Assembly: GCA_947626915.1 (NCBI GenBank)
Contig: CANQUA010000020.1
Location: 1-44,406, forward strand
From: an uncultured Lachnospiraceae bacterium
GTDB lineage: Bacteria > Bacillota > Clostridia > Lachnospirales > Lachnospiraceae
Length of the DNA: 44,406 bases
Reading direction: 5' to 3'
Shown: piece by piece, positions 22,142-36,427 of the stretch
How positions within the stretch are numbered: position 1 is the first letter of the stretch
Layout of the letters: each line of letters opens with the position of its first letter
Made by a program: the position numbers and the translations under genes
The notes under the pieces: generated by a model
Told to the model about the DNA's origin: nothing
Databases searched by the model: none
The model's input: only the letters and a program-made list of their open reading frames with translations

Positions 22142-22199
22142 AAAGACCGCGCAGCAGAAGCACATCCGCAGCCGGACGTACTTTCGCTGCGCGGTCTTT
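22142..22199 (-). terminator. Long stem-loop ending the catabolic cluster
   Basis: Perfect 14-bp arms AAAGACCGCGCAGC (22142-22155) and GCTGCGCGGTCTTT (22186-22199) around a 30-base loop. On the minus strand the stem ends in TTTTG, 60 bases after the esterase gene, so it is a likely terminator with a short T-run and unusually large loop. Confidence 0.5.
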
Positions 22200-22259: not shown

Positions 22260-22916
22260 TTACAGCGCCTTCAAAAAATCCATCAGCCTCTCCGCGATCC
22301 GTTCGTTGCCGGCGTCGCTGGGATGAAGGCCGTCCGGCATAAAACGCTCGCGCTGCGCAGGAATCTTGGGCTGGATGCCGCTGGTGCGGAACAGATCCAG
22401 TACAGGGATCCCGTAACAGGCGGCCGTCGACCGGATCGCATCCACGTACCCTTCCAGATCCGCGGCCAGCCGCACGCCGAATTCATTATAATCATAATTC
22501 GATTCGCTGAGCCGATGGAGCGGCGTCATCACTATAATCCTTCCGGCCGGATACCGGTTGATCAGCTTCTGCAGCAGCACATGCAGGGCTCCGTAAAACG
22601 TGTCTTCCGTTCGGTCCCCCAGCCGTCCCAGGGCCGCATCTCCATGGCCAAAATCATTGGTTCCGCCAAAAACGACCACAATGTCCGCGTCGGGGATCAT
22701 TTCTTCCACCCGCGAGCCAAAATACAGATCGTGCTTCGGATTGGGAGACGGGACCCTCTGCGGCGCGATCCGCGTACCGCCGATCCCATAGCCATAGCAA
22801 AGCGCGCCGGTACGCTTCTGCAGAACGTTCCAGAAAACGAACTCCGGCGAGGACGTCCCGACTCCCTCCGTAATACTGTCTCCTAAAAATGCGATTTTCT
22901 TTCCCTTTAATTCCAT
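22260..22916 (-). CDS. SGNH/GDSL-family esterase
   Basis: 218 residues from ATG 22916. Block I is FLGDSITEG with nucleophile Ser, block II Gly lies in GYGIGGTR, block III is GGTNDFG and block V is DGLHPSDAGN with the Asp-His pair, so the hydrolase is complete. No signal peptide, so intracellular. SGNH enzymes remove acyl or acetyl groups from sugars, lipids or glycans. As the last gene of the catabolic cluster it could deacylate the imported substrate. Substrate unknown. Confidence 0.88.
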   Translation of the reverse strand: MELKGKKIAFLGDSITEGVGTSSPEFVFWNVLQKRTGALCYGYGIGGTRIAPQRVPSPNPKHDLYFGSRVEEMIPDADIVVVFGGTNDFGHGDAALGRLGDRTEDTFYGALHVLLQKLINRYPAGRIIVMTPLHRLSESNYDYNEFGVRLAADLEGYVDAIRSTAACYGIPVLDLFRTSGIQPKIPAQRERFMPDGLHPSDAGNERIAERLMDFLKAL

Positions 22917-23018
22917 ATTTCTTTCCTTTCCCACAACAGCCGAACCGCATGGTTCCTGTCGTTTTTTGATCCCGAAATACGTCTGGTCCTCGCTTACCCG
23001 GCATTTTCCCTCCGGTTT

Positions 23019-23972
23019 TTACTGCCTCAGGCGAATCGATCCGCTCCTTCCAGCAAAGGGCTGTTCGCTTCTTCTGCCGCGGCTGCCCAGCGTCAGCATA
23101 TATTCTCCCAACTCTCTGGCAAAAACCACCGCTTTCTGATGAAACCCCTGATCGAATCCTTTGGAAAAATTATGGATCTCATAGGTAAAATCTCCCTCGT
23201 ATCCGATTTCCTCCAGCGCTTCCATAAATGGCTGCCAGCAAATAGTCCCTGCAAACGGCAGAATATGTTCATCCTTTTGTCCGTGGTTATCATTAATATG
23301 AAGAGCCTTGAGCCGCCGTCCCATCTGTCGAACCGCAGCCGGCTGATCCACCTTATTTAAGTTTCCATGTCCCGTATCCCAGCAAAGGCCAAATAATGAA
23401 TCATCTCCCAGACGGTCTAAAAGTTCTATCAGATCCTCCGAAGAAGCTGCAAAGCAGGGCATACTGTGGATAAACATGTTTTCTATCGCAATTCCAACGC
23501 CGTATTTGGCAGCCGCTTCCCCATAGCGGGCAAACAGCTCCCGGTTTTTCTCCAGAGAAAGACTGTGGGAGTACCAAACCGAATCACAGTAGGATTCCGG
23601 ATGAAGCACCAGCCACTTCACGCCGCAGAGCCCGGCAGCCTCGATATCCCTCAAAATGGTCCTGTCACGGAAAGCCCTCTCCTCTTCTGTCAGAAGCTCG
23701 CAGTGATCCAGAGCAAAAAAATGCGCGTGGCCCTGGGAAAAAGAAAGTCCCGCTTCCCGAGCACAGTCTCTCTGGCGTTCGACCCATTCCTTCCAGTTAT
23801 CCTTCGCCATATAATCGGTGCTCAATCTCCAAAACGCCAGATCCAGATCGACCGCCCCGTAGCCAGCCTCTGCAATCAGCCGGATTGCGTCCTCGCTTTC
23901 ATAGGTTTCCTGCGTCCACAGAACATGATTGCATAAATTGGTGGAAGTTGATACTTTTACCTGCGGTTTCAT
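23019..23972 (-). CDS. Sugar phosphate isomerase/epimerase-like TIM barrel B (AP endonuclease family 2)
   Basis: 317 residues, xylose-isomerase-like TIM barrel. Candidate metal ligands: Glu in IAIENMFIHS, Asp and His in CWDTGHGN, His in HINDNHGQKDEH, and a late Glu in YEIHNF. The family includes hydroxypyruvate, tagatose/psicose and inosose isomerases and dehydratases, so the exact reaction cannot be named. It is clearly related to the other TIM-barrel gene of the cluster (29451-30380), sharing the ENM, CWDTGH and HINDNH blocks. It lies 39 bp downstream of the MalG-like permease. The last 20 or so residues are a basic tail. Confidence 0.85.
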   Translation of the reverse strand: MKPQVKVSTSTNLCNHVLWTQETYESEDAIRLIAEAGYGAVDLDLAFWRLSTDYMAKDNWKEWVERQRDCAREAGLSFSQGHAHFFALDHCELLTEEERAFRDRTILRDIEAAGLCGVKWLVLHPESYCDSVWYSHSLSLEKNRELFARYGEAAAKYGVGIAIENMFIHSMPCFAASSEDLIELLDRLGDDSLFGLCWDTGHGNLNKVDQPAAVRQMGRRLKALHINDNHGQKDEHILPFAGTICWQPFMEALEEIGYEGDFTYEIHNFSKGFDQGFHQKAVVFARELGEYMLTLGSRGRRSEQPFAGRSGSIRLRQ

Positions 23973-24011
23973 CTATAAACGCCCCTTTTTCCTTTTTGTG
24001 CGGTCCTTCTG

Positions 24012-24872
24012 TTACTTCACACCCCGGTACGCCATCGCCTCGATGATCTTTTTGCTGGCCAGGAAGAACAAAATCAGAACCGGCAGCACCAGGATCACGT
24101 TGCCTGCCATGATAATGGGCCATTCCAATCCGCCTTCCAGATTCCGCAGGCTCTGAATCGCAATGGTGATCGGACGCACGGAATCATGCAGCGTCATGAC
24201 CAACGGCCAGAAATAGGAATTCCAGGTTCCGATCATGCTGAGCAGCATGATTGTCACCAACGTCGATTTGGACATGGGAAGCATGATCTTCAGCATGATT
24301 TTCAGTTCTCCCGCTTCATCCAGACGGGCTGATTCCAGAAGTTCTTCCGGTATCTGCATGAAATTCTGCCGCAAAAGGAAAATGCCGAACGCGTTGCAGA
24401 TACAGGGAATGATCTGAGGCAGCAACGTATCTAAAAGCTGCATCTTGGAAAACATTTGGAATACCGATACAAACGTGATCTGGGTCGGCACCATGAACGC
24501 CACCATGACCGCGCCAAACAGAACCCCCTTCATCTTGAAATTATATTTTGCAAACGCATAGGCCGCAGGAACCATGATGAGCACCTGCAAAAGCGTCACA
24601 CTGACTAAAATGATCAAAGAGTTTAAAATGTACCGCTCCAGATGTACCTGCTCAAACAGAGAAATATACGCATCTACGGTAAAATTCTGCGGAAGCAGAG
24701 TAGGCGGGTAAAGCAGCGACTCGTACAGCGTTTTAAACGACGTGCTGATCATCCACAAAAACGGGAAAGCAAAAATCACGCACACCAGAAGCTTGAAAAA
24801 CGTACTGATAACGGCAAATACAATCTTTTTCACCTTAAGCAGCTTTTTATTGGGCTTCTTATATTCGTACAT
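24012..24872 (-). CDS. CUT1 ABC importer permease, MalG/UgpE-like
   Basis: 286 residues with about six membrane helices. The coupling motif is ELLESARLDEAGELKIMLKIMLPMSK (EAA loop, near 190), the contact site for the ATPase. PFLWMISTSFKT near the N-terminus is typical of MalG-type subunits. It pairs with the MalF-like permease 12 bp upstream. Substrate is set by the UgpB-like binding lipoprotein of the same cluster. Confidence 0.92.
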   Translation of the reverse strand: MYEYKKPNKKLLKVKKIVFAVISTFFKLLVCVIFAFPFLWMISTSFKTLYESLLYPPTLLPQNFTVDAYISLFEQVHLERYILNSLIILVSVTLLQVLIMVPAAYAFAKYNFKMKGVLFGAVMVAFMVPTQITFVSVFQMFSKMQLLDTLLPQIIPCICNAFGIFLLRQNFMQIPEELLESARLDEAGELKIMLKIMLPMSKSTLVTIMLLSMIGTWNSYFWPLVMTLHDSVRPITIAIQSLRNLEGGLEWPIIMAGNVILVLPVLILFFLASKKIIEAMAYRGVK

Positions 24873-24884
24873 TCCTTTCCCTCC

Positions 24885-25769
24885 TTATTGATAATGCACC
24901 CGCTTACCCAGGATGCGGAAATAAATCACAGTCATAACAAGAAGAATCAGCAAAAGGATGGTTCCTGCCGCCGCGGACAGACCATATTTGCTGTAGTTGA
25001 ACGCCTGGCGGTAAATATAAAATACCAGCACGTCCGACGAATTGCCGGGGCCGCCCCCGGTCATGATCCGTACTGCGTCGAACACTTTGAAAGAATTGAT
25101 GGTAATCGTAATCAGCAGGAAAAACAGCTGAGGCGAAAGCATCGGCAGCGTGATCTTAAAAAAGGTCCGCAGCTTTCCCGCATCGTCCAGATCCGCCGCC
25201 TCCAGAAGCTCCGGCGGAATGGACTTTACGGACGACAAAAGAATCAGCGCATAATATCCCACGCCTTTCCAGATCGCTACGATCAGAATCGACAAAAGCG
25301 CCGTATGGGAGCTGTTCAGCCATCTGAGCGCCGGCAGATTAAACACCGACAGCACTGCGTTAAAAAGTCCCCTGTCATCCATCAGCCACTGAAACACCAT
25401 CGCTACCGTCAGCATGGCGCAGATGTGAGGCAAAAACATAAATCGCTGGACAATGGCATTGACCCAGGTGCTTCTCTGCAGCCAGAGCGCAAAGATCAAA
25501 GCCAGGGAAATCATAAAGACAATTACTCCCAATGTATAAAACACCGTATTTTTAAGTGCCGCAATAAAATCAATATTAACAAAGAAAAGCTGGTAATAGT
25601 TATCCCATCCCACAAATTTTTTCGGCGTCAGCATATCATATTTGAAAAAGCTCAAATAAACCATGTTGAACAGCGGATAGAACGTAAAAACTGCCAGAAG
25701 GGCCACTGCCGGCAGTATCATAACATAAGGCAATACCAGCTTTCCGATCCGGAACTGCTTATGCTTCAT
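24885..25769 (-). CDS. CUT1 ABC importer permease, MalF/UgpA-like
   Basis: 294 residues, six membrane helices. YVMILPAVALLAVFTFYPLFNMVYLSF is the usual N-terminal helix of UgpA-type permeases, and the EAA loop ELLEAADLDDAGKLRTFFKITLPML sits near 195. Its ATG overlaps the stop of the ATPase gene by four bases, so translation is coupled. With the MalG-like partner it forms the membrane channel of the importer. Confidence 0.92.
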   Translation of the reverse strand: MKHKQFRIGKLVLPYVMILPAVALLAVFTFYPLFNMVYLSFFKYDMLTPKKFVGWDNYYQLFFVNIDFIAALKNTVFYTLGVIVFMISLALIFALWLQRSTWVNAIVQRFMFLPHICAMLTVAMVFQWLMDDRGLFNAVLSVFNLPALRWLNSSHTALLSILIVAIWKGVGYYALILLSSVKSIPPELLEAADLDDAGKLRTFFKITLPMLSPQLFFLLITITINSFKVFDAVRIMTGGGPGNSSDVLVFYIYRQAFNYSKYGLSAAAGTILLLILLVMTVIYFRILGKRVHYQ

Positions 25770-26836
25770 GATTCTCCTCCTTCCGCCGTCATTTTCTCCA
25801 GGCTCGGAGAAATCCCGTCCCCGCGCAGCCTCCGCCCTTCTTCATCAAAATAGTACAAATCCTTCCGGTCTACTCCGATATAGACCCGGCTGTCCACCTC
25901 AAACATCAGATTCGGCGTTTTCGCCATCACCGCCGTTTTCCCGCTTCCGTCGTCCGCCTCTTCCAGCTGCAGCTTATAGATGGTCTCCGATCCCAGCATC
26001 TCTCTTGTCAGAACAACTGCTTTCCTGGCATACAAAAGATCCGGTTTCGTTTCCGAAAGCTGCACCTTTTCCGCACGATAACCCAGCTGATGTTTCCCAT
26101 CCTTCATTTTCTGGATATTCATCGGAGGCGTACCGATAAACTGAGCCGTAAAAACATTGTTCGGATCATTATAGATCTCCATGGGAGAAGCCATCTGCTG
26201 AATCTTGCCCCGGTCCATCAATACGATCGTATCCGCCATACTCATGGCCTCCGTCTGATCATGAGTCACATAGACGAACGTGGTCTTCAGCCGGTGATGC
26301 AGTTCGATCAGCTCTGTCCGCATGGAAACGCGCAGCTTGGCGTCCAGATTGGATAACGGCTCGTCCAGCAGAAATACTTTCGGTTTTTTTACCATCGCCC
26401 TGGCCAAAGCAACTCTCTGCCTCTGTCCTCCGGAAAGTTCCGACGGTTTGCGTTTCAGATAAGGCGTAAGCCCCACCGTCTCCGCCACTTCTGCAATCAA
26501 AGTCTCCCGCTCCGCTTTCGGTATCTTTCTGTTTTTCAGACCGAATTCAATATTTCCTTTTACGGTCATGGTAGGATAGATGGCGTAATTCTGAAACACC
26601 ATGGCAATGCCGCGCTTGCCCGGCGGGACATCACTGATCTCCTCTCCATCGATATACAGCTCGCCGGAGGTAGCAGGACCAATCCCGGCGATCATCCGCA
26701 GCAGCGTCGTTTTGCCGCATCCGGACGCGCCGACCAGCACTGTAAACTCTCCGTCGCGGATCGTCAGATTCAGATCTTCGATTACCTTCGTCTCTCCAAA
26801 CGATTTACATATATTCTTAAATACAATTTCTCCCAT
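25766..26836 (-). CDS. ugpC: CUT1 importer ATPase, UgpC/MsmK-like
   Basis: 356 residues. Walker A GASGCGKTT near 37-45, signature LSGGQRQRVALARA, Walker B VFLLDEPLSNLDAKLR, then the C-terminal TOBE/OB regulatory domain (from about 240). It powers the importer formed with the two downstream permeases. In many Firmicutes CUT1 operons lack an ATPase and share one multitask MsmK; here a dedicated copy lies inside the operon, as in the ugp glycerol-phosphate systems. The gene symbol marks the family, not a proven substrate. Confidence 0.9.
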   Translation of the reverse strand: MGEIVFKNICKSFGETKVIEDLNLTIRDGEFTVLVGASGCGKTTLLRMIAGIGPATSGELYIDGEEISDVPPGKRGIAMVFQNYAIYPTMTVKGNIEFGLKNRKIPKAERETLIAEVAETVGLTPYLKRKPSELSGGQRQRVALARAMVKKPKVFLLDEPLSNLDAKLRVSMRTELIELHHRLKTTFVYVTHDQTEAMSMADTIVLMDRGKIQQMASPMEIYNDPNNVFTAQFIGTPPMNIQKMKDGKHQLGYRAEKVQLSETKPDLLYARKAVVLTREMLGSETIYKLQLEEADDGSGKTAVMAKTPNLMFEVDSRVYIGVDRKDLYYFDEEGRRLRGDGISPSLEKMTAEGGES

Positions 26837-26898
26837 GCAATCCGTTCCTTTCTATAATGGTGGCTCCTTTTGACTGCGTTCCGGCCGGCCATAGCCGA

Positions 26899-26931
26899 GG
26901 ACGCCCGAACACGAAAATCATCCGGGCGTCC
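26899..26931 (-). promoter_or_regulatory. Stem-loop between binding protein and ATPase genes
   Basis: Perfect 9-bp arms GGACGCCCG (26899-26907) and CGGGCGTCC (26923-26931) with no T-run after them. Stem-loops here in importer operons protect the binding-protein mRNA or lower read-through, giving excess binding protein. Function inferred. Confidence 0.5.
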
Positions 26932-26941
26932 GCTTCTTCCG

Positions 26942-28339
26942 TCACGGGAAGATAATCGCCGCCTGTTTTCTCAGATAATCGATCGCCTCTGCGGGAGTCA
27001 TGGAGCCGTCTATTATTACATTGGTAATGCAATTGGTCACTTGATCTCTCCATTCCTCCAAATAAATGGACCAATCCTGATAGGTACAGATATCCAATTG
27101 ATCATATGCCACCTTATAATGCGGATTATCTGCCCAGAAATCCTGCATGGTCTGACTTTCAGCCGCACTGTAACTGAACGGCAGATATCCGGTCTTGATT
27201 GCCACCAGAGCCTGCTGTTCATCCTCCATCAGGAATTTGATAAATTCCCAGGCCGCCGCTACTTTCTGCTGATCATCACTGGTCATGATTGCTACTCCTC
27301 CGCCCCCGATCGGCCCGCAGTAACCACCGTATCCAACCATCCTGGCCACGCCCATCTCGATGCCTGCTTCCTTGCAAGATTTTTCCATATTGCCCATACC
27401 GCCAGAGCTGGTTGCCATTGCCGCCAAATTACCGCTAAAAAACTGCTGCTTCATCACGTTCTGAGAATCCGTTACATTCAAAGGCGCACAATAACCTTCC
27501 TGAATCCAAGTAGACCAGTCAGTCATAAATCTTTCCAAAGAGCCATCATCCAATAAAGCCGGAGCGTCCCCTTCTTCACCTTCCGTCATGGCATTAGCAC
27601 CAAGTGACTGTAGAATTGATTTATACATACCTGTATCCAGGACAAGACCCATGCCGTAAACACCAGGATTTTCTGCCGTGATTTTTTTAGCTATCTCCAC
27701 CCATTCCTCAATGGACTCAGGTTCTTTATCAAAAAAGGCCTTATTATAGTAAATTACAGCAGAAGACACCAGCCACGGAAATTCTATCACTTTTCCCTCG
27801 TAATGCTGCATATAGAGGCGCAATGTCTCCGGAATATTTTCCAGATCATAATTGTCCCTTGCCACATAGTCGGCCACGTCCATCAGAACGCCGGCATTGG
27901 CCAGCTCTTCAATGCCTCCCGCACCGACTACCGCTATCGCAGGACCGCTTCCCGTACTGTACGCGGTTTTCACTTTCGACAGTACGTCTGCATATCCGCC
28001 CTGATAAGTCGCCTCTACCGTGATCCCGTAGGGATTGGTAGCGTTAAAGGTCTCTACCTCTTCCGTCACCGCCTCCAGGTTACTGCCGGAGCCCATCGTA
28101 TGCCAGAATTCAATCGTAATTGGCGCCGTCACATAGTCCGGATACTCAGGAGCCGCCGCGACAGTCGTTTCTGCCGCCGCAGTAGTCTGAGACGCAGCTG
28201 TGGTCGCGGCCGTAGTTGCAGCTGCGGCAGTTGTCTGGGGCGCCGCCGTAGTATTCGTTGTTCCTCCGGAAGAACATGCTGCCAAAGATGCGATCATGGT
28301 CAAACTAAGAGCTGCAGCCAGTTGTTTTCTCAATTTCAT
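26942..28339 (-). CDS. UgpB-like extracellular solute-binding lipoprotein
   Basis: 465 residues. Lipoprotein signal peptide with lipobox LAAC (Cys near 22), then a Thr/Ala-rich flexible linker to about residue 64 and the type 1 binding-protein fold. It follows the E. coli UgpB pattern closely as I recall it: ITIEFWHTMGSGSN at the start, FFSGNLAAMATSSGGMGNM, IGGGGVAIMTSDD and KTGYLPFSY each align with UgpB segments. UgpB binds sn-glycerol-3-phosphate and glycerophosphocholine. That makes a glycerophosphodiester-like ligand a reasonable guess, but many sugar binders share this fold. Anchored outside the membrane, delivering to the permeases downstream. Confidence 0.85.
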   Translation of the reverse strand: MKLRKQLAAALSLTMIASLAACSSGGTTNTTAAPQTTAAAATTAATTAASQTTAAAETTVAAAPEYPDYVTAPITIEFWHTMGSGSNLEAVTEEVETFNATNPYGITVEATYQGGYADVLSKVKTAYSTGSGPAIAVVGAGGIEELANAGVLMDVADYVARDNYDLENIPETLRLYMQHYEGKVIEFPWLVSSAVIYYNKAFFDKEPESIEEWVEIAKKITAENPGVYGMGLVLDTGMYKSILQSLGANAMTEGEEGDAPALLDDGSLERFMTDWSTWIQEGYCAPLNVTDSQNVMKQQFFSGNLAAMATSSGGMGNMEKSCKEAGIEMGVARMVGYGGYCGPIGGGGVAIMTSDDQQKVAAAWEFIKFLMEDEQQALVAIKTGYLPFSYSAAESQTMQDFWADNPHYKVAYDQLDICTYQDWSIYLEEWRDQVTNCITNVIIDGSMTPAEAIDYLRKQAAIIFP

Positions 28340-28398
28340 TTTCTTTCCTCCTGTTGATCTGAATTCCTTTTATCTCTTTCTATTTTTTGCCCATCCGT

Positions 28399-29436
28399 TC
28401 ATTCTTTCAGCAGACTAAAATCATACTCGACCCGATATACCCTTCCGCCTGCGGTATAAAACGTCACATAATAATCCTCTCCGACATGAAACAGAGCCTC
28501 CTGTTCCGACACACTGCCGAGCCTGAAAATACCCTTGTATGCTCCGTCCCAGCCATAAACCTTGACTACCTCCGTACCGGCCCTTTTGGTGCCAACCCCG
28601 GAATTACCCACATAAATATACTTCTCATCGCAATCAATATTCTGGTTGCCTAAGACTTTGTGCCCTTCAAAATAATCTGTCTCGTCAAATTCCGCATCCA
28701 AAACCGCCAGATCCGGCGTTCCCTGGATCCCGACCACATATTGATCCCTGGCCTCGCAGTAGGATATCGCGTAAATCTTCTGTTCCAGGCTCCTTCTGTC
28801 TAAAATTTCCAGAGAATCCGGGTCCAGAAACGAGATATCATTGGGCGCTCCCTTTCCATGCGATTCTCCGTGAGCCAGGATCAGCTGTCCCAGCTTCGCA
28901 TTGTACGTGATGCTGTTGGCGTGATCCACCTCCAGCGGTTCGCTGGTCTTCACAATCTCCCAGCCGTCCATGTCCACCTTGAAAAGCAGACTGAGCGGAA
29001 CCCATTCGTCCCCATCCATCCTTCCGTTCGGGTCATTTAAGATCAGATAAACGTACTTGCCGTCAGTACAGCCCCCCTGCATGACCCTGTAATCGTCAAC
29101 CGCTTTCAGATTGAAATATTTTCCTTCTTCTGTCACACCTGAAACCGGTGCAACGGGAAGATGATCGAGAATATCCGGTTCCTGAAGCGAAGCCGGATCC
29201 GTAAAATCATAAGGATATTCCGCCTCTGTTTCTGAAGCCGCGCTTTCCGACGCAGTTTCTTCTGGGACCGCACTCTCAGACTGAGACGTTTCCAGAATCT
29301 CTTCTTCCCCCGTGCTCTGCGCCTTCTGTGTGTCTTCTTCTGCGTTTAAGAGATTCGGCTGCGTCTGACATCCGGCTAAAAGCAGGACGAGCACAGCAGA
29401 CGCCAAACTCATTTTTATTATCTTTTTCTTAATCAA
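28399..29436 (-). CDS. Lipoprotein with beta-propeller-like repeats, unknown function
   Basis: 345 residues. Signal peptide SLASAVLVLLLAGC with lipobox LAGC (Cys near 23), then an acidic Ser/Glu-rich linker to about 75. The rest has repeated short strands ending in patterns such as DGKYVYLIL, AKLGQLILAHG, DQYVVGIQG, EKYIYVGNSG and EDYYVTFYTAGG, spaced 40-50 residues apart. That suits a five- or six-bladed propeller resembling NHL or strictosidine-synthase-like folds. I know no named family for it. It sits between isomerase A and the binding lipoprotein, so it may bind or process the same substrate on the cell surface. Confidence 0.65.
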   Translation of the reverse strand: MIKKKIIKMSLASAVLVLLLAGCQTQPNLLNAEEDTQKAQSTGEEEILETSQSESAVPEETASESAASETEAEYPYDFTDPASLQEPDILDHLPVAPVSGVTEEGKYFNLKAVDDYRVMQGGCTDGKYVYLILNDPNGRMDGDEWVPLSLLFKVDMDGWEIVKTSEPLEVDHANSITYNAKLGQLILAHGESHGKGAPNDISFLDPDSLEILDRRSLEQKIYAISYCEARDQYVVGIQGTPDLAVLDAEFDETDYFEGHKVLGNQNIDCDEKYIYVGNSGVGTKRAGTEVVKVYGWDGAYKGIFRLGSVSEQEALFHVGEDYYVTFYTAGGRVYRVEYDFSLLKE

Positions 29437-29450
29437 CTCCTCCTTCCTCC

Positions 29451-30380
29451 TTATATTTTTCCGGTACTCCTTTTTGCTGTCTCATATATTTTCATCAGAT
29501 AACAGCCATTTTCGTAGGTAAGCCGCAGATACGCGTCCTGCATCTCCCCCTCTGCCCGGATCCCCACCTGCGGCGTTTCATAGGTCAAATCCCCGTCGTA
29601 GCCGATCTCCGCCAGAACCGGAATCAGCCTGAACCAGTCGATCTCTCCCATGAACGGCTGCAGATGTTCGTCTCTCGTGCCGTAATGGTTGTCATTGATG
29701 TGCAGATTTTTGAGGCGGCTTCCCACCGCCCTGAGCGCCCGCGCCTGATCGAAGCGCATCTGGTTGGCATGGCCCGTATCCCAGCAGGCCCCAACCATCG
29801 GATCCTGAAAGCTGTCAATCAAACGGTTCAGCTGCTCATACCGGGTGCAGTAGCGGTCCGGAAATTTCCGGTCCAGACTCGGCAGCATATTCTCAAAAGC
29901 AGTTCCCACATGACAGCGGATCCCCAGTTCCACATAGGAATCGTAATATTCCCGGTTCCCTTTCAGGTTCGGCTCCTCTTCATAATTAAATTCCGGAAAA
30001 CTCAGAGGATGCGCGGTGGCGTACCGTACCCCCAGCATACCGCTTCCGATATAAGCCCGCCGCATACATTCCGCGAAATATTCCGCATAACCCGTACTGG
30101 CAAAGTTCGGATCTGTCTGAAACTGCGTCGTCTGCACGTAAGGCAAATGACTCTGGGAAAAACGGATCCCCAATTTTGCAGCCAGTTCCGCGATCCGGTC
30201 GATCCTCTCCTGCCAGTCGTCATATCTCAGAATATAATTGGAATAATTCTGGCAGACAAACGTAAAATCCAATGTACGGTACCCCGCATCGTACAGCCGG
30301 CGTACGGCAGTCTCATAGTCATTCAGCAGCGGATTCCCAAAGCTTCTGAGACAAACTCCTATGGTTGTTGATACCTCCAT
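29451..30380 (-). CDS. Sugar phosphate isomerase/epimerase-like TIM barrel A (AP endonuclease family 2)
   Basis: 309 residues, xylose-isomerase-like TIM barrel. Candidate metal residues: Glu in TAFENMLPS, Asp and His in CWDTGHANQ, His in HINDNHYGTRDEH, and Glu in TYETPQVG. It is a paralogue of the 23019-23972 gene, with the same order of blocks but low overall similarity. Two such enzymes suggest consecutive steps, for example isomerisation then epimerisation or dehydration of a keto-sugar or inosose. The exact reaction is not readable from sequence. It lies 18 bp downstream of the phosphodiesterase gene. Confidence 0.85.
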   Translation of the reverse strand: MEVSTTIGVCLRSFGNPLLNDYETAVRRLYDAGYRTLDFTFVCQNYSNYILRYDDWQERIDRIAELAAKLGIRFSQSHLPYVQTTQFQTDPNFASTGYAEYFAECMRRAYIGSGMLGVRYATAHPLSFPEFNYEEEPNLKGNREYYDSYVELGIRCHVGTAFENMLPSLDRKFPDRYCTRYEQLNRLIDSFQDPMVGACWDTGHANQMRFDQARALRAVGSRLKNLHINDNHYGTRDEHLQPFMGEIDWFRLIPVLAEIGYDGDLTYETPQVGIRAEGEMQDAYLRLTYENGCYLMKIYETAKRSTGKI

Positions 30381-30398
30381 GCCCTGCGTCCCTTTCTC

Positions 30399-31691
30399 TC
30401 AGCTTATAAATTCTTCCAGCACCCTTCCGTCCGCCCCCTGCAGGTCGATCCCCAGGGCCCTGGCAAACGTAGGAGCCTCATCCACCAGATCCGCCCGTTC
30501 AAGCGTCACGTTCTCCCGGAAAGCCGGTCCTTTCGCCGAGAATACCGGCTGCGGACCTTTATCCGGCAGATGTCCGTGGGTCGCTTTCCCGTACCGGTAA
30601 TCCTCGCAGCGGAAAGCCGATACCAGCGGCCTTTTCAGCGACTCCCCGAAAGAAGTAAACCCGTCCGTCTCCAGCGCGAACGCGAAACTGCCTCCCAGGT
30701 GCTCCTGTCTGCGGATCTCCGCTTCCGTATAGACCTTTTCAAAACCGTAAACCCCTTCTTCCGCCAGGCGGCATAACAGCTTATACGTCTTATCATAGGC
30801 GTCCCGGTCGTTCGGATCTCTCAGATAAACCAACGCCTGCGATCCTCCTGACTGACAATAGGCTTTCCAGTCCTTAAGCTTTCCATCCCCGTCCGTCTCG
30901 ATCAGTCCGGCCTCCGCCAGCAGGACGTTCGGAGAAACGATGCGTTTGATATCGATCTGTCCATGATCGCTGACCAGCGCCAGATTGGTGCAGTCAGAAA
31001 GTCCCGCCTCTTCCACCGCCTCCATCAGCTCCCCGATATAGCGGTCGGTTTCCTCAATGCCTTTCGTCACCCGGTCGTTAAACAGACCGTAACTGTGACG
31101 GTATGTATCGATATTGGCCGGGTGCAGCATCAGCAGGTCCGGCTGATACCGGCGGATAAACTCTCCGGCGCACCGCATGATGAAATCGTCCGTCTGCGGA
31201 TGAGTGCGGATCCGGATCCCATGGAGCTGCCTCTCGATGATATCCAGAACCTCCCCGGAGGAACCCGCTCTGGCAAACACCTGCCGCAGGTCATCCTCTC
31301 CCGGCTGGGGCCAGTATTCGTCGATCAGATAATCGATCGCCGGATGGCCTCCGGTTACCGGCCAGAAAATGGCGGCTGTGGTCAGGCCCGCCCGTTTCGC
31401 CGCTGTAAAGAGATCTTCTTTCCACAAAACCGAGGAATAAAACCACTTCCACGGAACATACTCCGCCCCGGGCCTCAGCTCCATATTTCCCAGCACCCCG
31501 TGTTTCTCAGGCCACACGCCCGTCATCATCGTCGTGTGGCAGGGGTAGGTGATCGTGGGATAGATCGAACGGACCCGTTTCACCCTGCACCCGCCTTCCA
31601 GGTATTTTTGGTAATTCGGCAGGGTTTTTAAATATTCCACATCCTCACAGGTCATCGCATCCGCCGATAAAACGATCAGTTTCTGCTTCAT
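30399..31691 (-). CDS. Type I phosphodiesterase / nucleotide pyrophosphatase (NPP, alkaline phosphatase superfamily)
   Basis: 430 residues from ATG 31691, preceded by GGAGGAG. Metal-site Asp11 lies in LSADAM; the NPP signature YPTITYPCHTTMMTGVWPEKHG (44-65) holds the likely nucleophile Thr48; later DTYRHSYG, SDHGQ and THGHLPD supply the other Asp and His ligands. The family hydrolyses phosphodiester or phosphonate bonds using two zinc ions. No signal peptide, so it acts on imported substrate in the cytoplasm, unlike most secreted NPPs. In this cluster it would do the job UgpQ does in E. coli: split an imported diester into a phosphate ester and an alcohol. Substrate is inferred. Confidence 0.85.
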   Translation of the reverse strand: MKQKLIVLSADAMTCEDVEYLKTLPNYQKYLEGGCRVKRVRSIYPTITYPCHTTMMTGVWPEKHGVLGNMELRPGAEYVPWKWFYSSVLWKEDLFTAAKRAGLTTAAIFWPVTGGHPAIDYLIDEYWPQPGEDDLRQVFARAGSSGEVLDIIERQLHGIRIRTHPQTDDFIMRCAGEFIRRYQPDLLMLHPANIDTYRHSYGLFNDRVTKGIEETDRYIGELMEAVEEAGLSDCTNLALVSDHGQIDIKRIVSPNVLLAEAGLIETDGDGKLKDWKAYCQSGGSQALVYLRDPNDRDAYDKTYKLLCRLAEEGVYGFEKVYTEAEIRRQEHLGGSFAFALETDGFTSFGESLKRPLVSAFRCEDYRYGKATHGHLPDKGPQPVFSAKGPAFRENVTLERADLVDEAPTFARALGIDLQGADGRVLEEFIS

Positions 31692-31801
31692 AGTTCTCCT
31701 CCGCACCAATCTTTCCGGATACTCTGTTTGGGGGCCGTCTCCCGGGCGGTATCCTGACCCCGGCCGGCTTTTCCAAATGGCATCCGTCTCCGCCGTGTCT
31801 A

Positions 31802-32845
31802 TCAGAAGCGAATAACCGTTTTCACAATGTTCGATTTATCGGAAACGCTTTTGTCCATGGCTTCCTGCACGTCGTCAAAATCAAAGATATCGGTGACGAC
31901 GCCTTTCAGGTTCACCCGGCCGGCCGCTACCGCGTCGATCGCCATCGGATAAATATGCCGGTACCGGAACACGGTTTTGAAGGTTAATTCCTTATCCAGG
32001 ACCAGGCTCATGGGCAATTTCATCTCCCCGCTGGCGGAATATCCCACCAGCACGATATTGGCGCCTTTTTTCACCATATCGATACACTGACGGGTTGTCG
32101 TCTCCGTCCCTGCCGTTTCGATCGCCAGATCGCATCCCGCTCCTTCGGTTAATCTCTGAACGGCCAGGACCGGATCCTCCAGGCTGGCGTCGATGACGCC
32201 GTCCGCTCCCAGCTCCAGCGCTTTGTCCAGGCGTTTCCGCATCAGGTCGACCACGTAAACCCGGCTGACTCCTCTGTCCCTCAGCGCCATCATGGAAACC
32301 AGGCCGATACAGCCGGCCCCCATCACCACCGCCGTCTGTCCGGGGCCCGCCTCGCCCTGATTGGCCGCATGGAATCCCACAGCCAGCGGTTCGATCAGCG
32401 CTCCTTCCAGTGTGCTCACATTCTCCGGCAGCTTGAAGCACAATTCCTCCGGATGGGCCACGTATTCCTGAAATACCCCGTCCACCGGCGGCGTGGCAAA
32501 AAATACCACGTCCGGGCAAAGATTGTACCGGCCGGTTCTGCAAAATTCGCAGTGTCCGCAGGTTTTGCCGGGTTCCAGCGCCACCCGGTCCCCTGCTGCC
32601 AGATGCTTTACATTTGCACCTACCTCCACTACCGTTCCCCCGGGCTCATGGCCCAGAACGAAAGGAGGCTTCACTACGTATGCGCCGATGGCTCCGGTTT
32701 CATAATAGTGAATATCGCTGCCGCAGACGCCTACGTATTCCAACTTAACCAATACCTCATCCGGCTTTGGTGACGGAACCGGTTTTCGCAAATATCGAAT
32801 CTTTCCGATCCCGTCCATAGCCGCTGCCTTCATGGTGCCATTCAT
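31802..32845 (-). CDS. Zinc-dependent medium-chain dehydrogenase, sorbitol/xylitol dehydrogenase type
   Basis: 347 residues. Catalytic zinc region GVCGSDIHYYE and GHEPGGTVVEVG; structural zinc cysteines CGHCEFCRTGRYNLC (four Cys, spacing 2-2-7); Rossmann NAD site VVMGAGCIGLVSM near 170. HYYETG is typical of polyol dehydrogenases that oxidise a secondary alcohol to a ketose. First gene of the catabolic cluster, after a strong promoter whose downstream edge carries an operator-like motif. Substrate is probably a polyol or cyclitol released from the imported compound. The preceding few N-terminal residues (MNGT) are a short extension. Confidence 0.9.
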   Translation of the reverse strand: MNGTMKAAAMDGIGKIRYLRKPVPSPKPDEVLVKLEYVGVCGSDIHYYETGAIGAYVVKPPFVLGHEPGGTVVEVGANVKHLAAGDRVALEPGKTCGHCEFCRTGRYNLCPDVVFFATPPVDGVFQEYVAHPEELCFKLPENVSTLEGALIEPLAVGFHAANQGEAGPGQTAVVMGAGCIGLVSMMALRDRGVSRVYVVDLMRKRLDKALELGADGVIDASLEDPVLAVQRLTEGAGCDLAIETAGTETTTRQCIDMVKKGANIVLVGYSASGEMKLPMSLVLDKELTFKTVFRYRHIYPMAIDAVAAGRVNLKGVVTDIFDFDDVQEAMDKSVSDKSNIVKTVIRF

Positions 32846-32876
32846 ACTCTTCCTCCGAAAATTACTTTTATAATGT

Positions 32877-32890
32877 ATTTTATTAAGTAT
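32877..32890 (-). promoter_or_regulatory. Candidate ROK operator at the dehydrogenase promoter
   Basis: Minus strand ATACTTAATAAAAT, directly after the -10. It matches the site at the ROK promoter (34155-34168) in 12 of 14 positions. It also overlaps the inverted repeat TTATTA-N6-TAATAA (32880-32897), which spans the -10. Confidence 0.5.
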
Positions 32891-32919
32891 ATAATAAACT
32901 ATACAATTTGATTTGTCAA
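32891..32919 (-). promoter_or_regulatory. Strong promoter of the catabolic cluster
   Basis: Minus strand perfect TTGACA (32914-32919), 17-bp spacer and TATTAT (32891-32896), about 45 bp before the dehydrogenase start. The surrounding DNA is very AT-rich. Confidence 0.75.
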
Positions 32920-32973
32920 GAGCAAATTACATTTTAGTGAAAAGATATTAAAATTATTTCTGAATTTTATGAA

Positions 32974-33009
32974 AAATAGACAAATGGCCCTGATTTCTCA
33001 AGGCCATTC
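32974..33009 (-). terminator. Intrinsic terminator of the ROK gene
   Basis: Arms AATGGCC (32984-32990) and GGCCATT (33003-33009), followed on the minus strand by TGTCTATTTTT. It isolates the ROK gene from the cluster promoter just downstream. Confidence 0.65.
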
Positions 33010-33019
33010 TTCGATTTAA

Positions 33020-34132
33020 TCATATTTCGCGGATAAATCTTCTGACATGCAGGAGAGCCGCTCCCACCGCCGACGCCTCCAAATGATACCGGCTGCTCCT
33101 GAAATACGAATCGTCCGGCTGGAACGTGTTGCGCTGCCGGAGCATTTCGCGGAGAGGCGCCCCAAATTCCTCCAAAAAACCTCCGACATAACCGCCGACA
33201 ATCACATCGCAGTCAAAGCTCATGCGCAGGTTGTTGATCTCCACGGCCAGATACTGCAGATATTCTCTCCACACCTCTGCGGCCTGGGCATCCCCGCTCC
33301 GCAGCCAGTTAAAGAAGCCTATGATCGTACCATCCGCCCGGTCGGCCAGGACTTTGGCGGAGCAGTAGGCGTCCAGGCAGCCGTCTTTCCCGCAATAGCA
33401 CTGCCGGCCGCCCGGAACCAGCGTATTGTGCCCGAACTCTCCGGCGCGGAGATTATCGCCAAGATAGATTTCCCCGTTTTTCACGATGGCCCCGCCCACG
33501 CTGTTGCTCAAAGACAGGTAGACCAGATTTTCGTTTTCATCCTTTCCCCATACCTCCGCCATGGCCGCGGCGTTGGCGTCGTTTGTAAAGGCGCAGGGAT
33601 ATTCGATATAGCGGCTGAAGGTGGACGTGGGAATATCTCTCAGCCCCAGGGCGTGGGAAAACAAAAGAATGCTTCCCGTCTCATTGATGATCCCCGGCAG
33701 GGATATCCCGACGCCCAAAAGATTTGTTTTCCCTCCTGCAAACTCATCCACGATGCTTTTCAGCTGCCGGAAATACCCGTCGTCCATGGAGAACGGATAT
33801 TTTTTCCGGGAATAATCCAGGACCTTCCCGCTCAGATCCACCAGTACGATGCCCACATGATTCAGGGTCACATCCAGTCCGACCGCCAGCCTGGCGCTCC
33901 GGACAGGCGCATAGGCCCTGGCCTTCCGTCCTCCGGTCGATTCGTAGGTACCTACCTCGCATACCAGCCCCATCGCAGCCAGCTCTTTCACATTCTGCAG
34001 GACCGTGGGCCAGCTGAGGGCCAGCCTCCGGGCCAGCTCCGGCTGGGAAATGCTTTCGCAGTTCAGGATACACCGCAGCGTGTTTGCCCGGTTCCGCCTT
34101 TTTACGTCTACATTATTGGAAGGTTCCGTCAT
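33020..34132 (-). CDS. ROK-family transcriptional regulator (NagC/XylR-like)
   Basis: 370 residues. An N-terminal winged helix-turn-helix (about 10-75; CESISQPELARRLALSWPTVLQNVKEL) is joined to a sugar-kinase-like ROK domain: GVGISLPGII, FTNDANAAAMAEVWG, and zinc ligands CYCGKDGCLDAYC near 245. The phosphate-loop residues are weak (GLDVTLNHVG), as expected for a regulator rather than a kinase. It normally represses sugar genes until a sugar or sugar phosphate binds. It has its own promoter and terminator and lies between the catabolic cluster and the divergent glycerol-1-phosphate dehydrogenase gene, so it probably controls both and itself. Confidence 0.9.
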   Translation of the reverse strand: MTEPSNNVDVKRRNRANTLRCILNCESISQPELARRLALSWPTVLQNVKELAAMGLVCEVGTYESTGGRKARAYAPVRSARLAVGLDVTLNHVGIVLVDLSGKVLDYSRKKYPFSMDDGYFRQLKSIVDEFAGGKTNLLGVGISLPGIINETGSILLFSHALGLRDIPTSTFSRYIEYPCAFTNDANAAAMAEVWGKDENENLVYLSLSNSVGGAIVKNGEIYLGDNLRAGEFGHNTLVPGGRQCYCGKDGCLDAYCSAKVLADRADGTIIGFFNWLRSGDAQAAEVWREYLQYLAVEINNLRMSFDCDVIVGGYVGGFLEEFGAPLREMLRQRNTFQPDDSYFRSSRYHLEASAVGAALLHVRRFIREI

Positions 34133-34154
34133 ACACTATTGCCCTTTCATAAGC

Positions 34155-34168
34155 ATTTAATAAAGTAT
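34155..34168 (-). promoter_or_regulatory. Candidate ROK operator at its own promoter
   Basis: Minus strand ATACTTTATTAAAT, four bases after the -10, over the expected transcription start. It is 12 of 14 identical to the site after the -10 of the dehydrogenase promoter. A weaker related sequence beginning ATACT overlaps the -10 of the divergent promoter at 34276. Confidence 0.5.
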
Positions 34169-34172
34169 CTAT

Positions 34173-34201
34173 ATATTAGCCGATTTCTCCGGAATTGGCA
34201 A
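34173..34201 (-). promoter_or_regulatory. Promoter of the ROK regulator
   Basis: Minus strand TTGCCA (34196-34201), 17-bp spacer and TAATAT (34173-34178), about 40 bp before the start codon. Confidence 0.6.
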
Positions 34202-34248
34202 GTCCCGTCCCTGTCTTTTTCATATTTTTCCGTTTTTCATAAAAGCTC

Positions 34249-34277
34249 TTGACTATTATTCATAATTTTTATATGAT
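34249..34277 (+). promoter_or_regulatory. Promoter of the glycerol-1-phosphate dehydrogenase gene
   Basis: TTGACT (34249-34254), 17-bp spacer and TATGAT (34272-34277), 47 bp before the chosen start. It runs back to back with the ROK promoter, whose -35 is 47 bp away. Confidence 0.7.
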
Positions 34278-34324
34278 ACTATTGTAATGTCTTTATGAAA
34301 GATTCATCAAAAGAGGGAATAAAC

Positions 34325-35638
34325 ATGAAAAACTATTTGCCATCCGAACCTTGTCCCTGCGGCCGGAGCCATCAGGCCGCGATCCTGGAAACCGTCGTCC
34401 GTCCCGGAGCGATCCGGGAACTTCCGGAGTGGATCTCCCGTCTGGGCGCGCAGAAACCTTTTTTGCTGGCCGACGCCCATACCCGTGCCGCAATCGACGC
34501 CGTCTGCGGCGTACTGGACGCTCATCAGATCCCTTACAGCGCCCATATATTTGAGGATCCGCACCTGGAACCGGATGAACGGGCCGCCGGCTCCGCCGTC
34601 ATGCACTTCGATACCGGCTGCGATCTGATCGTCGCCATCGGGTCCGGCGTGATCAACGACATCGGGAAGCTTTTGAGCAGCCGCCTGAACCTCGGCTACA
34701 TCATCGTGGCCACGGCCCCCTCCATGGACGGCTACGCGTCCTCCACCTCCTCCATGGCGGTAGACGGGCTCAAGGTATCCCTGAATACGCGCTGCGCGGA
34801 CGTGATCATCGGCGATATCTCCCTTCTCAAAGACGCGCCCCTGCCCATGCTGCAGGCCGGTCTCGGCGATATGCTGGCCAAATACGTCAGCATCGCGGAA
34901 TGGAGGATCGCCCATCTGATCACCGGAGAATATTACTGCGAAGCGGTGGCCCGGCTGGTCCGCGACGCCTTAAAGCGGTGCATCAGCCGGGCGGAAGGCT
35001 TAAAAGCCCGGGAGGAAGAGGCCGTGAGCGCCGTGTTCGAGGGCCTGGTCGTCACCGGAATCGCCATGTCCTATGCAGGCGTTTCCCGTCCCGCTTCCGG
35101 CGTTGAACATTATTTTTCCCATATATGGGACATGCGGGGGCTGGAATTCGGTACGCCGGTCCATCTGCACGGGATCCAATGCGCCGTCGCCACCCTGACC
35201 GCCGTCCGTCTTTATGAGAAGCTGAAAACTTTCACGCCTGACCGTGGGCTGGCCGAGGCCGGCGTCCGCGCCTTCGATCCCGACGCCTGGAACCGCGAAC
35301 TGCGGGATTTCCTGGGCAGCGCTGCCGAAGCCATGATCCGGCTGGAGGAAAAAGAGAAAAAATACGATTTGGACCGCCATGCCGCCCGCTTTGAGCGAAT
35401 CGCCTCCCACTGGGACGAAATCCTGCGCATCCTGGACGAGGAACTGCCGTCCTCGGAAACCATCCTCGGCATTCTGGAGACCATCGGCCTGGACGGCTCT
35501 CTGTCCTCTCTCGGCGTCGATCTGCCGACCGCCCGGAGAACCTTCAAGGCTACGAAAGATATCCGCGACAAATACGTGCTGTCCCGGCTGGCCTGGGATC
35601 TGGGCATTCTGGATCCGCTGGCCGAAGAGATCTGTTAA
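34325..35638 (+). CDS. egsA: sn-Glycerol-1-phosphate dehydrogenase (EgsA/AraM family)
   Basis: 437 residues from ATG 34325 after GAGGGA; an earlier in-frame start would add ten residues without a site. The family interconverts dihydroxyacetone phosphate and sn-glycerol-1-phosphate with NAD(P)H. The cofactor region is IVAIGSGVINDIGK, followed by VATAPSMDGYASSTSSM with a metal Asp; metal His residues lie in GVEHYFSHIWD and VHLHGIQCAVAT. The bacterial AraM subfamily carries a similar long C-terminal helical region. In this setting a catabolic direction (oxidising G1P released from an imported diester) is as plausible as lipid synthesis. It is divergent from the ROK gene and ends in a large terminator. 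Confidence 0.88.
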   Translation: MKNYLPSEPCPCGRSHQAAILETVVRPGAIRELPEWISRLGAQKPFLLADAHTRAAIDAVCGVLDAHQIPYSAHIFEDPHLEPDERAAGSAVMHFDTGCDLIVAIGSGVINDIGKLLSSRLNLGYIIVATAPSMDGYASSTSSMAVDGLKVSLNTRCADVIIGDISLLKDAPLPMLQAGLGDMLAKYVSIAEWRIAHLITGEYYCEAVARLVRDALKRCISRAEGLKAREEEAVSAVFEGLVVTGIAMSYAGVSRPASGVEHYFSHIWDMRGLEFGTPVHLHGIQCAVATLTAVRLYEKLKTFTPDRGLAEAGVRAFDPDAWNRELRDFLGSAAEAMIRLEEKEKKYDLDRHAARFERIASHWDEILRILDEELPSSETILGILETIGLDGSLSSLGVDLPTARRTFKATKDIRDKYVLSRLAWDLGILDPLAEEIC

Positions 35639-35661
35639 ATGTGTTCATACAAATCATAAAA

Positions 35662-35740
35662 GCTGCCGCGTCAGAACCTTCCGTCCGCCGGTTTTCCGGA
35701 TCCGGACCATGGTTCTGCCCTGCGGCAGCATTTTCTTTTT
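35662..35740 (+). terminator. Large intrinsic terminator after egsA
   Basis: Outer arms GCTGCCGC (35662-35669) and GCGGCAGC (35722-35729), inner arms CAGAACC (35672-35678) and GGTTCTG (35711-35717), innermost CCGG-TTTT-CCGG, followed by ATTTTCTTTTT. Read the other way it could also serve the convergent CarD-family gene. The rest of the gap to 35829 holds nothing I recognise. Confidence 0.75.
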
Positions 35741-35829
35741 ACGCATACCAATTTCCTGTTTTACCTTTCTGCGGCATTTTCATCATCTGTGCAGCACCGT
35801 TCCCTTTTCAATGTCTGCAGACGGCCCCG

Positions 35830-36345: not shown

Positions 36346-36397
36346 CCTTTCTCACTCATCCAATCACTATTCGGGCTTCTTCTTTCATCATATCTCT

Positions 36398-36427
36398 ATT
36401 TTATCACTTTTATTCGGAAAATGACAA
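36398..36427 (-). promoter_or_regulatory. Promoter of the CarD-family gene
   Basis: Minus strand TTGTCA (36422-36427), 18-bp spacer and TAAAAT (36398-36403), about 53 bp before the start codon. The surroundings are AT-rich. Confidence 0.6.

What the first reader, a model, noticed from the sequence alone, without database searches (positions are those of the whole stretch)
22260..35638. Putative glycerophosphodiester (glycerol-1-phosphate) scavenging system
The cluster joins a UgpB-like binding lipoprotein with a dedicated UgpC-type ATPase and permeases, a cytoplasmic NPP-type phosphodiesterase in the place of UgpQ, a divergent sn-glycerol-1-phosphate dehydrogenase, a polyol dehydrogenase, two isomerases and an esterase. 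A simple reading is import of an X-phospho-glycerol, cleavage inside, oxidation of G1P to DHAP, and processing of X as a polyol or cyclitol. G1P units occur in lipoteichoic acid (from phosphatidylglycerol head groups) and in archaeal lipids, both present in the gut. I know of no described pathway with this gene set.
Basis: inference. Interest (0 to 1): 0.75.

Follow-up and report, generated by a model that had tools for sequence, protein, structure and literature searches.

The report
Glycerol-phosphodiester uptake and breakdown operon
A gut bacterium carries an operon that appears to import a phosphate-bridged molecule and cut it up inside the cell, with an archaeal-type enzyme that may burn the mirror-image glycerol phosphate released, as could come from cell-wall polymers.

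Summary
I support phosphodiester import and intracellular cleavage, keep the G1P step as likely but unproven, and correct one assignment. The binding protein keeps the four phosphate-holding residues of UgpB (3 of 20 scored binding proteins of this genome do, itself included) but not its tryptophan clamp. In two related loci GDPD, the UgpQ family, stands in for NPP beside a like importer, lipoX, TIM barrel and EgsA; Clostridium sp. MCC353 has importer, lipoX, TIM barrel and NPP with a divergent EgsA. EgsA keeps the G1P-dehydrogenase signature, and PcrB was found in 0 of 11 EgsA genomes, which argues for catabolism. The two 'isomerases' keep nine of nine metal ligands of endonuclease IV, against four to six in four E. 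coli sugar isomerases/epimerases, so they are more likely phosphoesterases. Against: the four most similar EgsA proteins lie in other neighbourhoods; many relatives sit beside an FGGY kinase; X and stereochemistry are untested. New variant of the Ugp kind.

The parts
22142..22199 (-). inverted repeat (27-nt arms, 4-nt loop), likely operon terminator
   Evidence: the repeat finder I1
22260..22934 (-). GDSL esterase
   Evidence: PF13472 81.4 bits; 50-60% homologs beside NPP or GDPD clusters in L046, L138, L257
23019..23972 (-). isoB: AP_endonuc_2 TIM barrel with the nine endonuclease IV metal ligands; proposed metallo-phosphoesterase
   Evidence: PF01261 103.5 bits; nine ligands
24012..24872 (-). 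UgpE-type permease
   Evidence: PF00528; NCBIfam UgpE 103.6 bits, cutoff 297
24885..25769 (-). UgpA-type permease
   Evidence: PF00528; NCBIfam UgpA 131.7 bits, cutoff 335
25766..26836 (-). UgpC/MsmX-type ATPase
   Evidence: NCBIfam UgpC subfamily 389.1 bits, cutoff 432
26942..28339 (-). UgpB-like binding lipoprotein with the Tyr-Ser-Ser-Tyr phosphate quartet
   Evidence: PF13416 124.1 bits, PDB hits, residue check
28399..29436 (-). lipoX: lipoprotein (lipobox by eye) of an undescribed family with a QGxCTDGxY motif
   Evidence: no Pfam or NCBIfam hit at E 0.001, no PDB hit at E 1; family alignment; loci
29451..30380 (-). isoA: AP_endonuc_2 TIM barrel with the nine endonuclease IV metal ligands; proposed metallo-phosphoesterase
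   Evidence: PF01261 85.9 bits; only PDB match MJ1311 3wqo; nine ligands
30399..31709 (-). NPP-type phosphodiesterase, cytoplasmic by eye
   Evidence: PF01663 165 bits; catalytic and metal residues kept
31802..32845 (-). zinc polyol dehydrogenase (sorbitol/xylitol dehydrogenase type)
   Evidence: PF08240/PF00107; PDB 5vm2, sorbitol and xylitol dehydrogenases
32891..32919 (-). promoter-like site of the operon (11 of 12)
33020..34132 (-). ROK-family regulator with winged HTH
   Evidence: PF00480 142.2 bits, PF13412
34249..34277 (+). promoter-like site of egsA (10 of 12)
34295..35638 (+). EgsA/AraM-type glycerol-1-phosphate dehydrogenase family enzyme
   Evidence: PF13685 96.9 bits; PDB 9h4x G1PDH 4.4e-43; conserved signature

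Best explanation
A Ugp-like scavenging system. The UgpB-like lipoprotein captures a phosphodiester larger than glycerol phosphate, and the ABC importer brings it in whole. NPP and the two endonuclease-IV-like TIM barrels hydrolyse phosphoester bonds inside the cell, and the GDSL esterase removes acyl groups. One product is sn-glycerol-1-phosphate, which EgsA oxidises to dihydroxyacetone phosphate for glycolysis; the zinc dehydrogenase oxidises the other, polyol or sugar, part. ROK represses the operon and perhaps egsA. A fitting source is glycerol-1-phosphate polymer of the lipoteichoic acid kind or another glycan decorated with phosphatidylglycerol-derived glycerol-1-phosphate. Shown here: gene content, family and active-site residues, recurrence of the set, exchange of NPP and GDPD, no PcrB found. 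Inferred: substrate, stereochemistry, direction of EgsA, phosphoesterase role of the TIM barrels, regulation.
For: (1) The binding protein keeps Tyr65, Ser144, Ser270, Tyr346 of E. coli UgpB, whose Phaeobacter equivalents hold the phosphate and are reported kept in glycerophosphocholine- and dinucleotide-binding proteins but not in glucose binders (PMC12718374, passages). 12 of 14 other cluster binding proteins given keep all four, against 3 of 20 scored in the window's genome, window protein included; all three lie with phosphoester enzymes (on C53 a nine-ligand TIM barrel is near and the NPP 14 kb off). (2) In the 299-genome draw this binding-protein clade has 8 loci: NPP or GDPD close by in 5, NPP 14 kb away in 1, neither in 2; EgsA in 5. 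(3) L257 (with L134, same contig) carries homologs of GDSL, ROK, dehydrogenase, ATPase, both permeases, lipoX, binding protein, TIM barrel and EgsA, with GDPD instead of NPP. (4) EgsA: 47 of 47 homologs compared keep D192, H272, H276 and H292. (5) PcrB found in 0 of 11 EgsA genomes, 7 of them at least 90% complete and at most 5% contaminated; B. subtilis control positive. (6) LTA is sn-glycerol-1-phosphate and GlpQ cannot cleave intact LTA (PMC7086022, passages). (7) L207, with the most similar binding protein seen outside the window (51%), adds GDPD, PHP and a GH13 enzyme like trehalose synthase/oligo-1,6-glucosidase.
Against: The most similar EgsA proteins (60, 58, 55-58, 52%) lie beside other genes, though one has a nine-ligand TIM barrel and two have distant CUT1 permeases within 10 kb. 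15 of 41 EgsA genes have an FGGY kinase within 10 kb and two sit in ara-type operons. GlpQ-type GDPDs are reported strictly specific for sn-glycerol-3-phosphoryl groups, so a GDPD beside EgsA does not by itself predict G1P. The Trp clamp and the Glu that hold glycerol in UgpB are lost, and the Arg column reads Asp (an Arg is next to it). EgsA scores 170.5 bits against a 413-bit equivalog cutoff. Two of 8 loci of the binding-protein clade show neither NPP nor GDPD. The genome has five GDPD places elsewhere, so NPP does not make up for a missing GDPD. The window operon holds no obvious extracellular depolymerase.
Confidence: 0.48

Rival explanations
1. Uptake and breakdown of a pentitol- or polyol-phosphodiester (for example ribitol- or arabinitol-phosphate polymers). 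NPP frees polyol and polyol phosphate; EgsA-type enzymes oxidise a polyol or polyol phosphate other than G1P; kinase, epimerase and transketolase carry the pentulose on.
For: L042 and L046 join two EgsA, NPP and the importer with ribulokinase-type kinase, ribulose-phosphate epimerase and transketolase (the last named by reading its sequence); L043 and L114 also have the kinase; L138 has NPP, GDSL, ROK, dehydrogenase, kinase and epimerase but no EgsA in 20 kb. The window dehydrogenase resembles sorbitol and xylitol dehydrogenases.
Against: The window operon has no kinase, epimerase or transketolase. The EgsA metal site is unchanged in 47 of 47 homologs and its signature is shared with solved G1P dehydrogenases. 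GDPD recurs in clusters without an FGGY kinase in the stretch held (L207, L226).
Confidence: 0.27
2. An oligosaccharide operon of the CUT1 + dehydrogenase + epimerase kind, like E. coli ycj, in which NPP and EgsA are incidental.
For: CUT1 importer, zinc dehydrogenase, AP_endonuc_2 proteins, ROK and GDSL are common in such operons (recalled); the annotated E. coli ycj operon joins importer, dehydrogenases and the epimerase YcjR.
Against: Phosphate quartet kept; repeated NPP or GDPD; YcjR lacks the nine-ligand set; YcjN and YcjQ are only remotely similar.
Confidence: 0.12
3. EgsA works in the biosynthetic direction and supplies G1P for ether lipids or mixed-chirality membranes; its place beside the operon is accidental.
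For: B. subtilis AraM serves a pathway to an ether phospholipid, and PlsY accepts both glycerol phosphates (PMC13400652, passages).
Against: PcrB found in 0 of 11 genomes (other G1P users were not searched); EgsA recurs with the importer, lipoX, NPP or GDPD in other genera.
Confidence: 0.07

Closest known systems
E. coli UgpBAEC-UgpQ glycerophosphodiester uptake
   Same: CUT1 importer with UgpB-like phosphate quartet, dedicated UgpC-type ATPase, phosphodiesterase gene in the operon
   Different: NPP instead of GDPD in the window, Trp clamp lost, added EgsA, two endonuclease-IV-like TIM barrels, polyol dehydrogenase, lipoX, ROK regulator
G1P transport by UgpB/GpxB in marine bacteria (PMC12718374)
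   Same: bacterial uptake of glycerol-1-phosphate, one route being a CUT1 binding protein
   Different: free glycerol phosphates there; here a phosphodiester is proposed, with NPP and EgsA in the cluster
AraM of Bacillus subtilis and archaeal EgsA
   Same: family, metal ligands, SRPASGxEHxxSH signature
   Different: no PcrB found in the genome; gene divergent from an importer operon; proposed catabolic direction
Endonuclease IV / MJ1311 / CbiR
   Same: AP_endonuc_2 family and, compared with endonuclease IV, all nine metal ligands
   Different: below the curated cutoffs of nfo and CbiR; no DNA-repair or cobamide gene in the operon

Membership tests
UgpBAEC(Q) sn-glycerol-3-phosphate/glycerophosphodiester system | binding protein with phosphate-holding Tyr/Ser/Ser/Tyr | tested here: met
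UgpBAEC(Q) sn-glycerol-3-phosphate/glycerophosphodiester system | Trp pair and Glu that hold the glycerol | tested here: not met
   L, G and A in place of W192, W195 and E89
UgpBAEC(Q) sn-glycerol-3-phosphate/glycerophosphodiester system | curated NCBIfam scores for UgpA, B, C, E | tested here: not met
   131.7/335, 78.7/411, 389.1/432, 103.6/297 bits
UgpBAEC(Q) sn-glycerol-3-phosphate/glycerophosphodiester system | GDPD (UgpQ) in the operon | tested here: not met
   absent from the window operon; present in related loci: L131, L257 by Pfam, L207 by NCBIfam, L226, L233 by BLAST
G1P dehydrogenase (EgsA/AraM) | Fe-ADH_2 domain with Asp/His/His metal site and family signature | tested here: met
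   96.9 bits, cutoff 28; D192, H272, H276, H292 kept; roles recalled
G1P dehydrogenase (EgsA/AraM) | curated equivalog score | tested here: not met
   170.5 against 413 bits; the model has 350 positions, the protein 447 residues
G1P dehydrogenase (EgsA/AraM) | activity with G1P | not testable with these tools
   needs the enzyme
NPP phosphodiesterases (alkaline phosphatase superfamily) | Thr nucleophile and two-metal ligands | tested here: met
   D17, T54, D201, H205, D248, H249 in 56 of 56 homologs, H378 in 55 of 56; assignment of roles recalled
Endonuclease IV-type trinuclear site | nine metal ligands | tested here: met
   isoA and isoB 9 of 9; Hyi, UlaE, YcjR, FrlC 4 to 6 of 9; ligand list recalled
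Endonuclease IV (nfo) proper | curated family score | tested here: not met
   isoB 19.8 against 129.65 bits; isoA no match
Sugar isomerase/epimerase equivalogs (FrlC, IolO, psicose epimerase, Hyi, IolE) | curated family score | tested here: not met
   20.8 to 36.4 bits against 290 to 353

The most novel reading that the evidence does not exclude
A dedicated catabolic pathway of gut clostridia for sn-glycerol-1-phosphate polymers (lipoteichoic-acid type). Decorated glycerol-1-phosphate diesters are imported whole, stripped of esters and sugars, cut by NPP and by a new group of endonuclease-IV-like phosphodiesterases that resemble sugar isomerases, and G1P is burnt by a bacterial EgsA. This would explain how the GlpQ-resistant enantiomer of teichoic acid is recycled.
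Probability: 0.27. Interest if true: 0.82.

Novelty: new variant of a known kind. Interest (0 to 1): 0.6.

Why it matters
G1P is usually discussed as an archaeal lipid precursor. A bacterial operon that imports and oxidises it would give bacterial EgsA/AraM genes a catabolic role and would show one fate for lipoteichoic acid, whose glycerol phosphate is the enantiomer that GlpQ cannot release. Independently, the nine-ligand TIM barrels suggest that a share of proteins taken for sugar isomerases/epimerases are phosphoesterases: in this genome 8 of 10 PF01261 places keep the full set.

Tried and rejected
Rejected: 35641-36435 (+) as a gene (no Pfam match; odd composition by eye). Rejected: lipoX as a marker exclusive to the system. 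Of 78 named loci 3 show EgsA in the stretch scored (two of them in one genome), 5 if two cut loci are completed from the whole-genome copies; many loci are cut by contig ends. In the 299-genome draw lipoX was found in 9 genomes, and outside the window's genome 3 lipoX loci lie within 15 kb of EgsA against 0.12 expected (rough p 3e-4). Rejected: archaeal ether lipids as the main source (ether bonds; inference). A shared ROK operator between the egsA and operon promoters was looked for by eye and by the repeat finder; only an AT-rich 21-nt pair (86%) came up, not claimed.

Papers: searches were run; among the rows listed (15 of 22, 10 of 13, 10 of 13, 15 of 43, 15 of 222, 15 of 34, 1 of 1, 1 of 1) I saw no title or abstract start on an NPP-EgsA-UgpB operon. 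They cover the held open-access library only. Of the papers cited I saw abstract and passages of PMC12718374 and passages of PMC7086022, PMC7733943 and PMC13400652. Passages of PMC8603345 and PMC5059525 were read and added nothing decisive.

Limits. The Poisson tests use genome sizes and counts typed by hand, with EgsA at E <= 1e-40, and treat places as random, so they are rough. In one search the seven rows of L038, L042, L043, L044 and L046 come from loci fetched through NPP and inflate the NPP count; the GDPD of the L134 contig (seen in L257) is not in that count. In some searches one of 21 SBP places (L176) gave no frame and was dropped. The ligand columns of distant proteins depend on the alignments.
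Full report
What is there. The window is contig C20 of a 3.18-Mb genome (99.4% complete). Ten minus-strand genes from 32845 down to 22260 lie with gaps of -4 to 105 bp: zinc polyol dehydrogenase, NPP, TIM barrel isoA, lipoX, binding lipoprotein, ATPase, two permeases, TIM barrel isoB, GDSL esterase. A ROK regulator (33020-34132) with a terminator-like site lies upstream of them, and EgsA (34295-35638) is divergent from it. A 27-nt inverted repeat after the esterase is a likely terminator.

The importer. The closest solved relatives of the binding protein are a 'sugar' binding protein (7c0r and variants; by recall from Thermus and from the group that described the dinucleotide binder, not tested) and E. 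coli UgpB. A 2025 paper on G1P transport (PMC12718374; abstract and passages) names Tyr64, Ser143, Ser266 and Tyr342 of Phaeobacter UgpB as phosphate ligands, kept in glycerophosphocholine- and dinucleotide-binding proteins and not in glucose binders, and two Trp plus Glu, Gly and Arg for the glycerol. In the alignment with E. coli UgpB the window protein has Tyr, Ser, Ser, Tyr and Gly at these columns but no Trp and no Glu; the Arg column reads Asp with an Arg beside it. Of the 14 other cluster proteins given, 12 have the quartet; the other two have Thr for one or both Ser. As a control, 21 SBP_bac_8 places of the same genome were found; 20 gave a frame and 3 have the quartet. These are the window protein, its paralog on C53, and one on C56 that lies beside a metallo-beta-lactamase, SurE and a 5'-nucleotidase. 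This fits a phosphodiester ligand with a pocket unlike that for free glycerol phosphate.

Exchange of the phosphodiesterase. In a draw of 299 family genomes the binding protein (E <= 1e-60) has 8 loci in 7 genomes. NPP or GDPD lies in the cluster in five (window, G304, G114, G119, G311), NPP is 14 kb away in one (C53), and two (G331, G126) show a HAD hydrolase but neither enzyme. EgsA is in five of the eight. L257 (Lachnospiraceae SC0379_S9_8; same contig as L134 by length) reads GDSL, ROK, dehydrogenase, ATPase, permeases, nucleoside-hydrolase-like, PHP, GDPD, lipoX, a 2396-aa beta-helix protein, binding protein, TIM barrel, EgsA, with further genes on L134 including MgtC, an AraL-like HAD, an FGGY kinase and two transketolase-like halves. 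G114 (L131, L233) has the same kind of set with GDPD. L208 (Clostridium sp. MCC353, = L114) reads kinase, DeoR, EgsA divergent from NPP, ATPase, permeases, binding protein, lipoX, TIM barrel. In the window's own genome a second locus (C8) has a 46% isoA homolog, a binding protein with Tyr-Ser-Thr-Tyr, permeases and GDPD. The importer thus keeps company with two unrelated phosphodiesterase families. The genome has five GDPD places, none in the window.

EgsA. The best solved matches are G1P dehydrogenases (9h4x 4.4e-43, then three further entries so named). In 47 homologs compared D192, H272, H276 and H292 never change and the SRPASGxEHxxSH stretch is nearly invariant. PcrB, by recall the enzyme that uses G1P for lipids in B. 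subtilis, was found in 0 of 11 EgsA genomes (0 of 7 among those at least 90% complete), while the B. subtilis control rings. This argues against lipid synthesis by that route. A tree places the window EgsA in a 9-row clade (SH-aLRT 99) with L114 and the second EgsA of L042 and L046, but also with L110, L111, L112 and L113, which lie elsewhere, and L200, which is cut by its contig end. Linked EgsA proteins fall in at least three clades, so the association is modular, by exchange or repeated recruitment. Of 41 EgsA genes examined, 12 have NPP or GDPD within 10 kb and 15 an FGGY kinase (seven rows were fetched through NPP). ara-type operons with EgsA occur in L116 and L132 (araA and araD named from size, order and mutual similarity; araB of L116 by NCBIfam).

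The 'isomerases'. isoA and isoB match no isomerase model near its cutoff; the only solved match of isoA is MJ1311, which by recall is described as keeping the nine zinc ligands of endonuclease IV. Aligned with E. coli endonuclease IV, isoA and isoB have 9 of 9 ligands, as have the six other cluster rows of alignment A3 and 20 of 20 further rows chosen by similarity (some are one gene in two loci), while Hyi, UlaE, YcjR and FrlC have 4 to 6. Endonuclease IV hydrolyses phosphodiester bonds, and CbiR, which acts on cobamides with a phosphodiester, belongs to this superfamily (PMC7733943, passages). I therefore read isoA and isoB as metallo-phosphoesterases. This would also give a cleaving enzyme to clusters without NPP or GDPD in the stretch held (L201/L205, L203/L206). 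The caution is that 8 of 10 PF01261 places of the genome keep the set, so the site is common and its function there is unknown; conservation among similar proteins may be by descent alone.

Source of substrate. LTA consists of sn-glycerol-1-phosphate and GlpQ cannot cleave it intact; WTA is the opposite enantiomer (PMC7086022, passages). A decorated glycerol-1-phosphate polymer would need an esterase, glycosidases, a phosphodiesterase other than GlpQ and a G1P dehydrogenase. The window has esterase, phosphodiesterases and EgsA; L207 adds a GH13 enzyme like trehalose synthase/oligo-1,6-glucosidase beside GDPD, without EgsA in the 17 kb held. This is an inference; pentitol-phosphate polymers fit some sister clusters better (L042, L046, L138).

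Verdict. Phosphodiester import and internal cleavage is well supported by anatomy, residues and comparison; oxidation of G1P is likely; identity of X and the polymer source are open. New variant of the Ugp kind, not a member of the curated UgpBAEC models.

Noticed in passing
L131:8617-18051, L257:10691-17881, L207:10953-16985: Giant proteins (3144, 2396 and at least 2011 aa) with beta-helix stretches, one with a GDSL domain, next to lipoX and the importer; possible depolymerases of the parent polymer.
   Followed up: partly
window 28399-29436; L205-L282: lipoX family: proteins sharing a QGxCTDG motif, no Pfam entry for the window member, found in 78 loci of clostridial genomes, mostly from gut and rumen and mostly outside this system.
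   Followed up: partly
L297 (G000:C56): Another CUT1 importer with the phosphate quartet beside metallo-beta-lactamase, SurE and 5'-nucleotidase genes; looks like nucleotide or phosphoester uptake.
   Followed up: partly
L298 (G000:C8): Second Ugp-like cluster of the same genome: LacI, isoA homolog (46%), binding protein, permeases, GDPD.
   Followed up: partly
L116, L132: ara-type operons with an adjacent AraM/EgsA gene, as in B. subtilis; why a G1P dehydrogenase family member travels with arabinose genes is unexplained.
   Followed up: no
G219:C95, G119:C39, G264:C74, G217:C21 (table): EgsA matches with one stop codon counted inside the matched stretch; possible frame ends or decay, not examined.
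   Followed up: no
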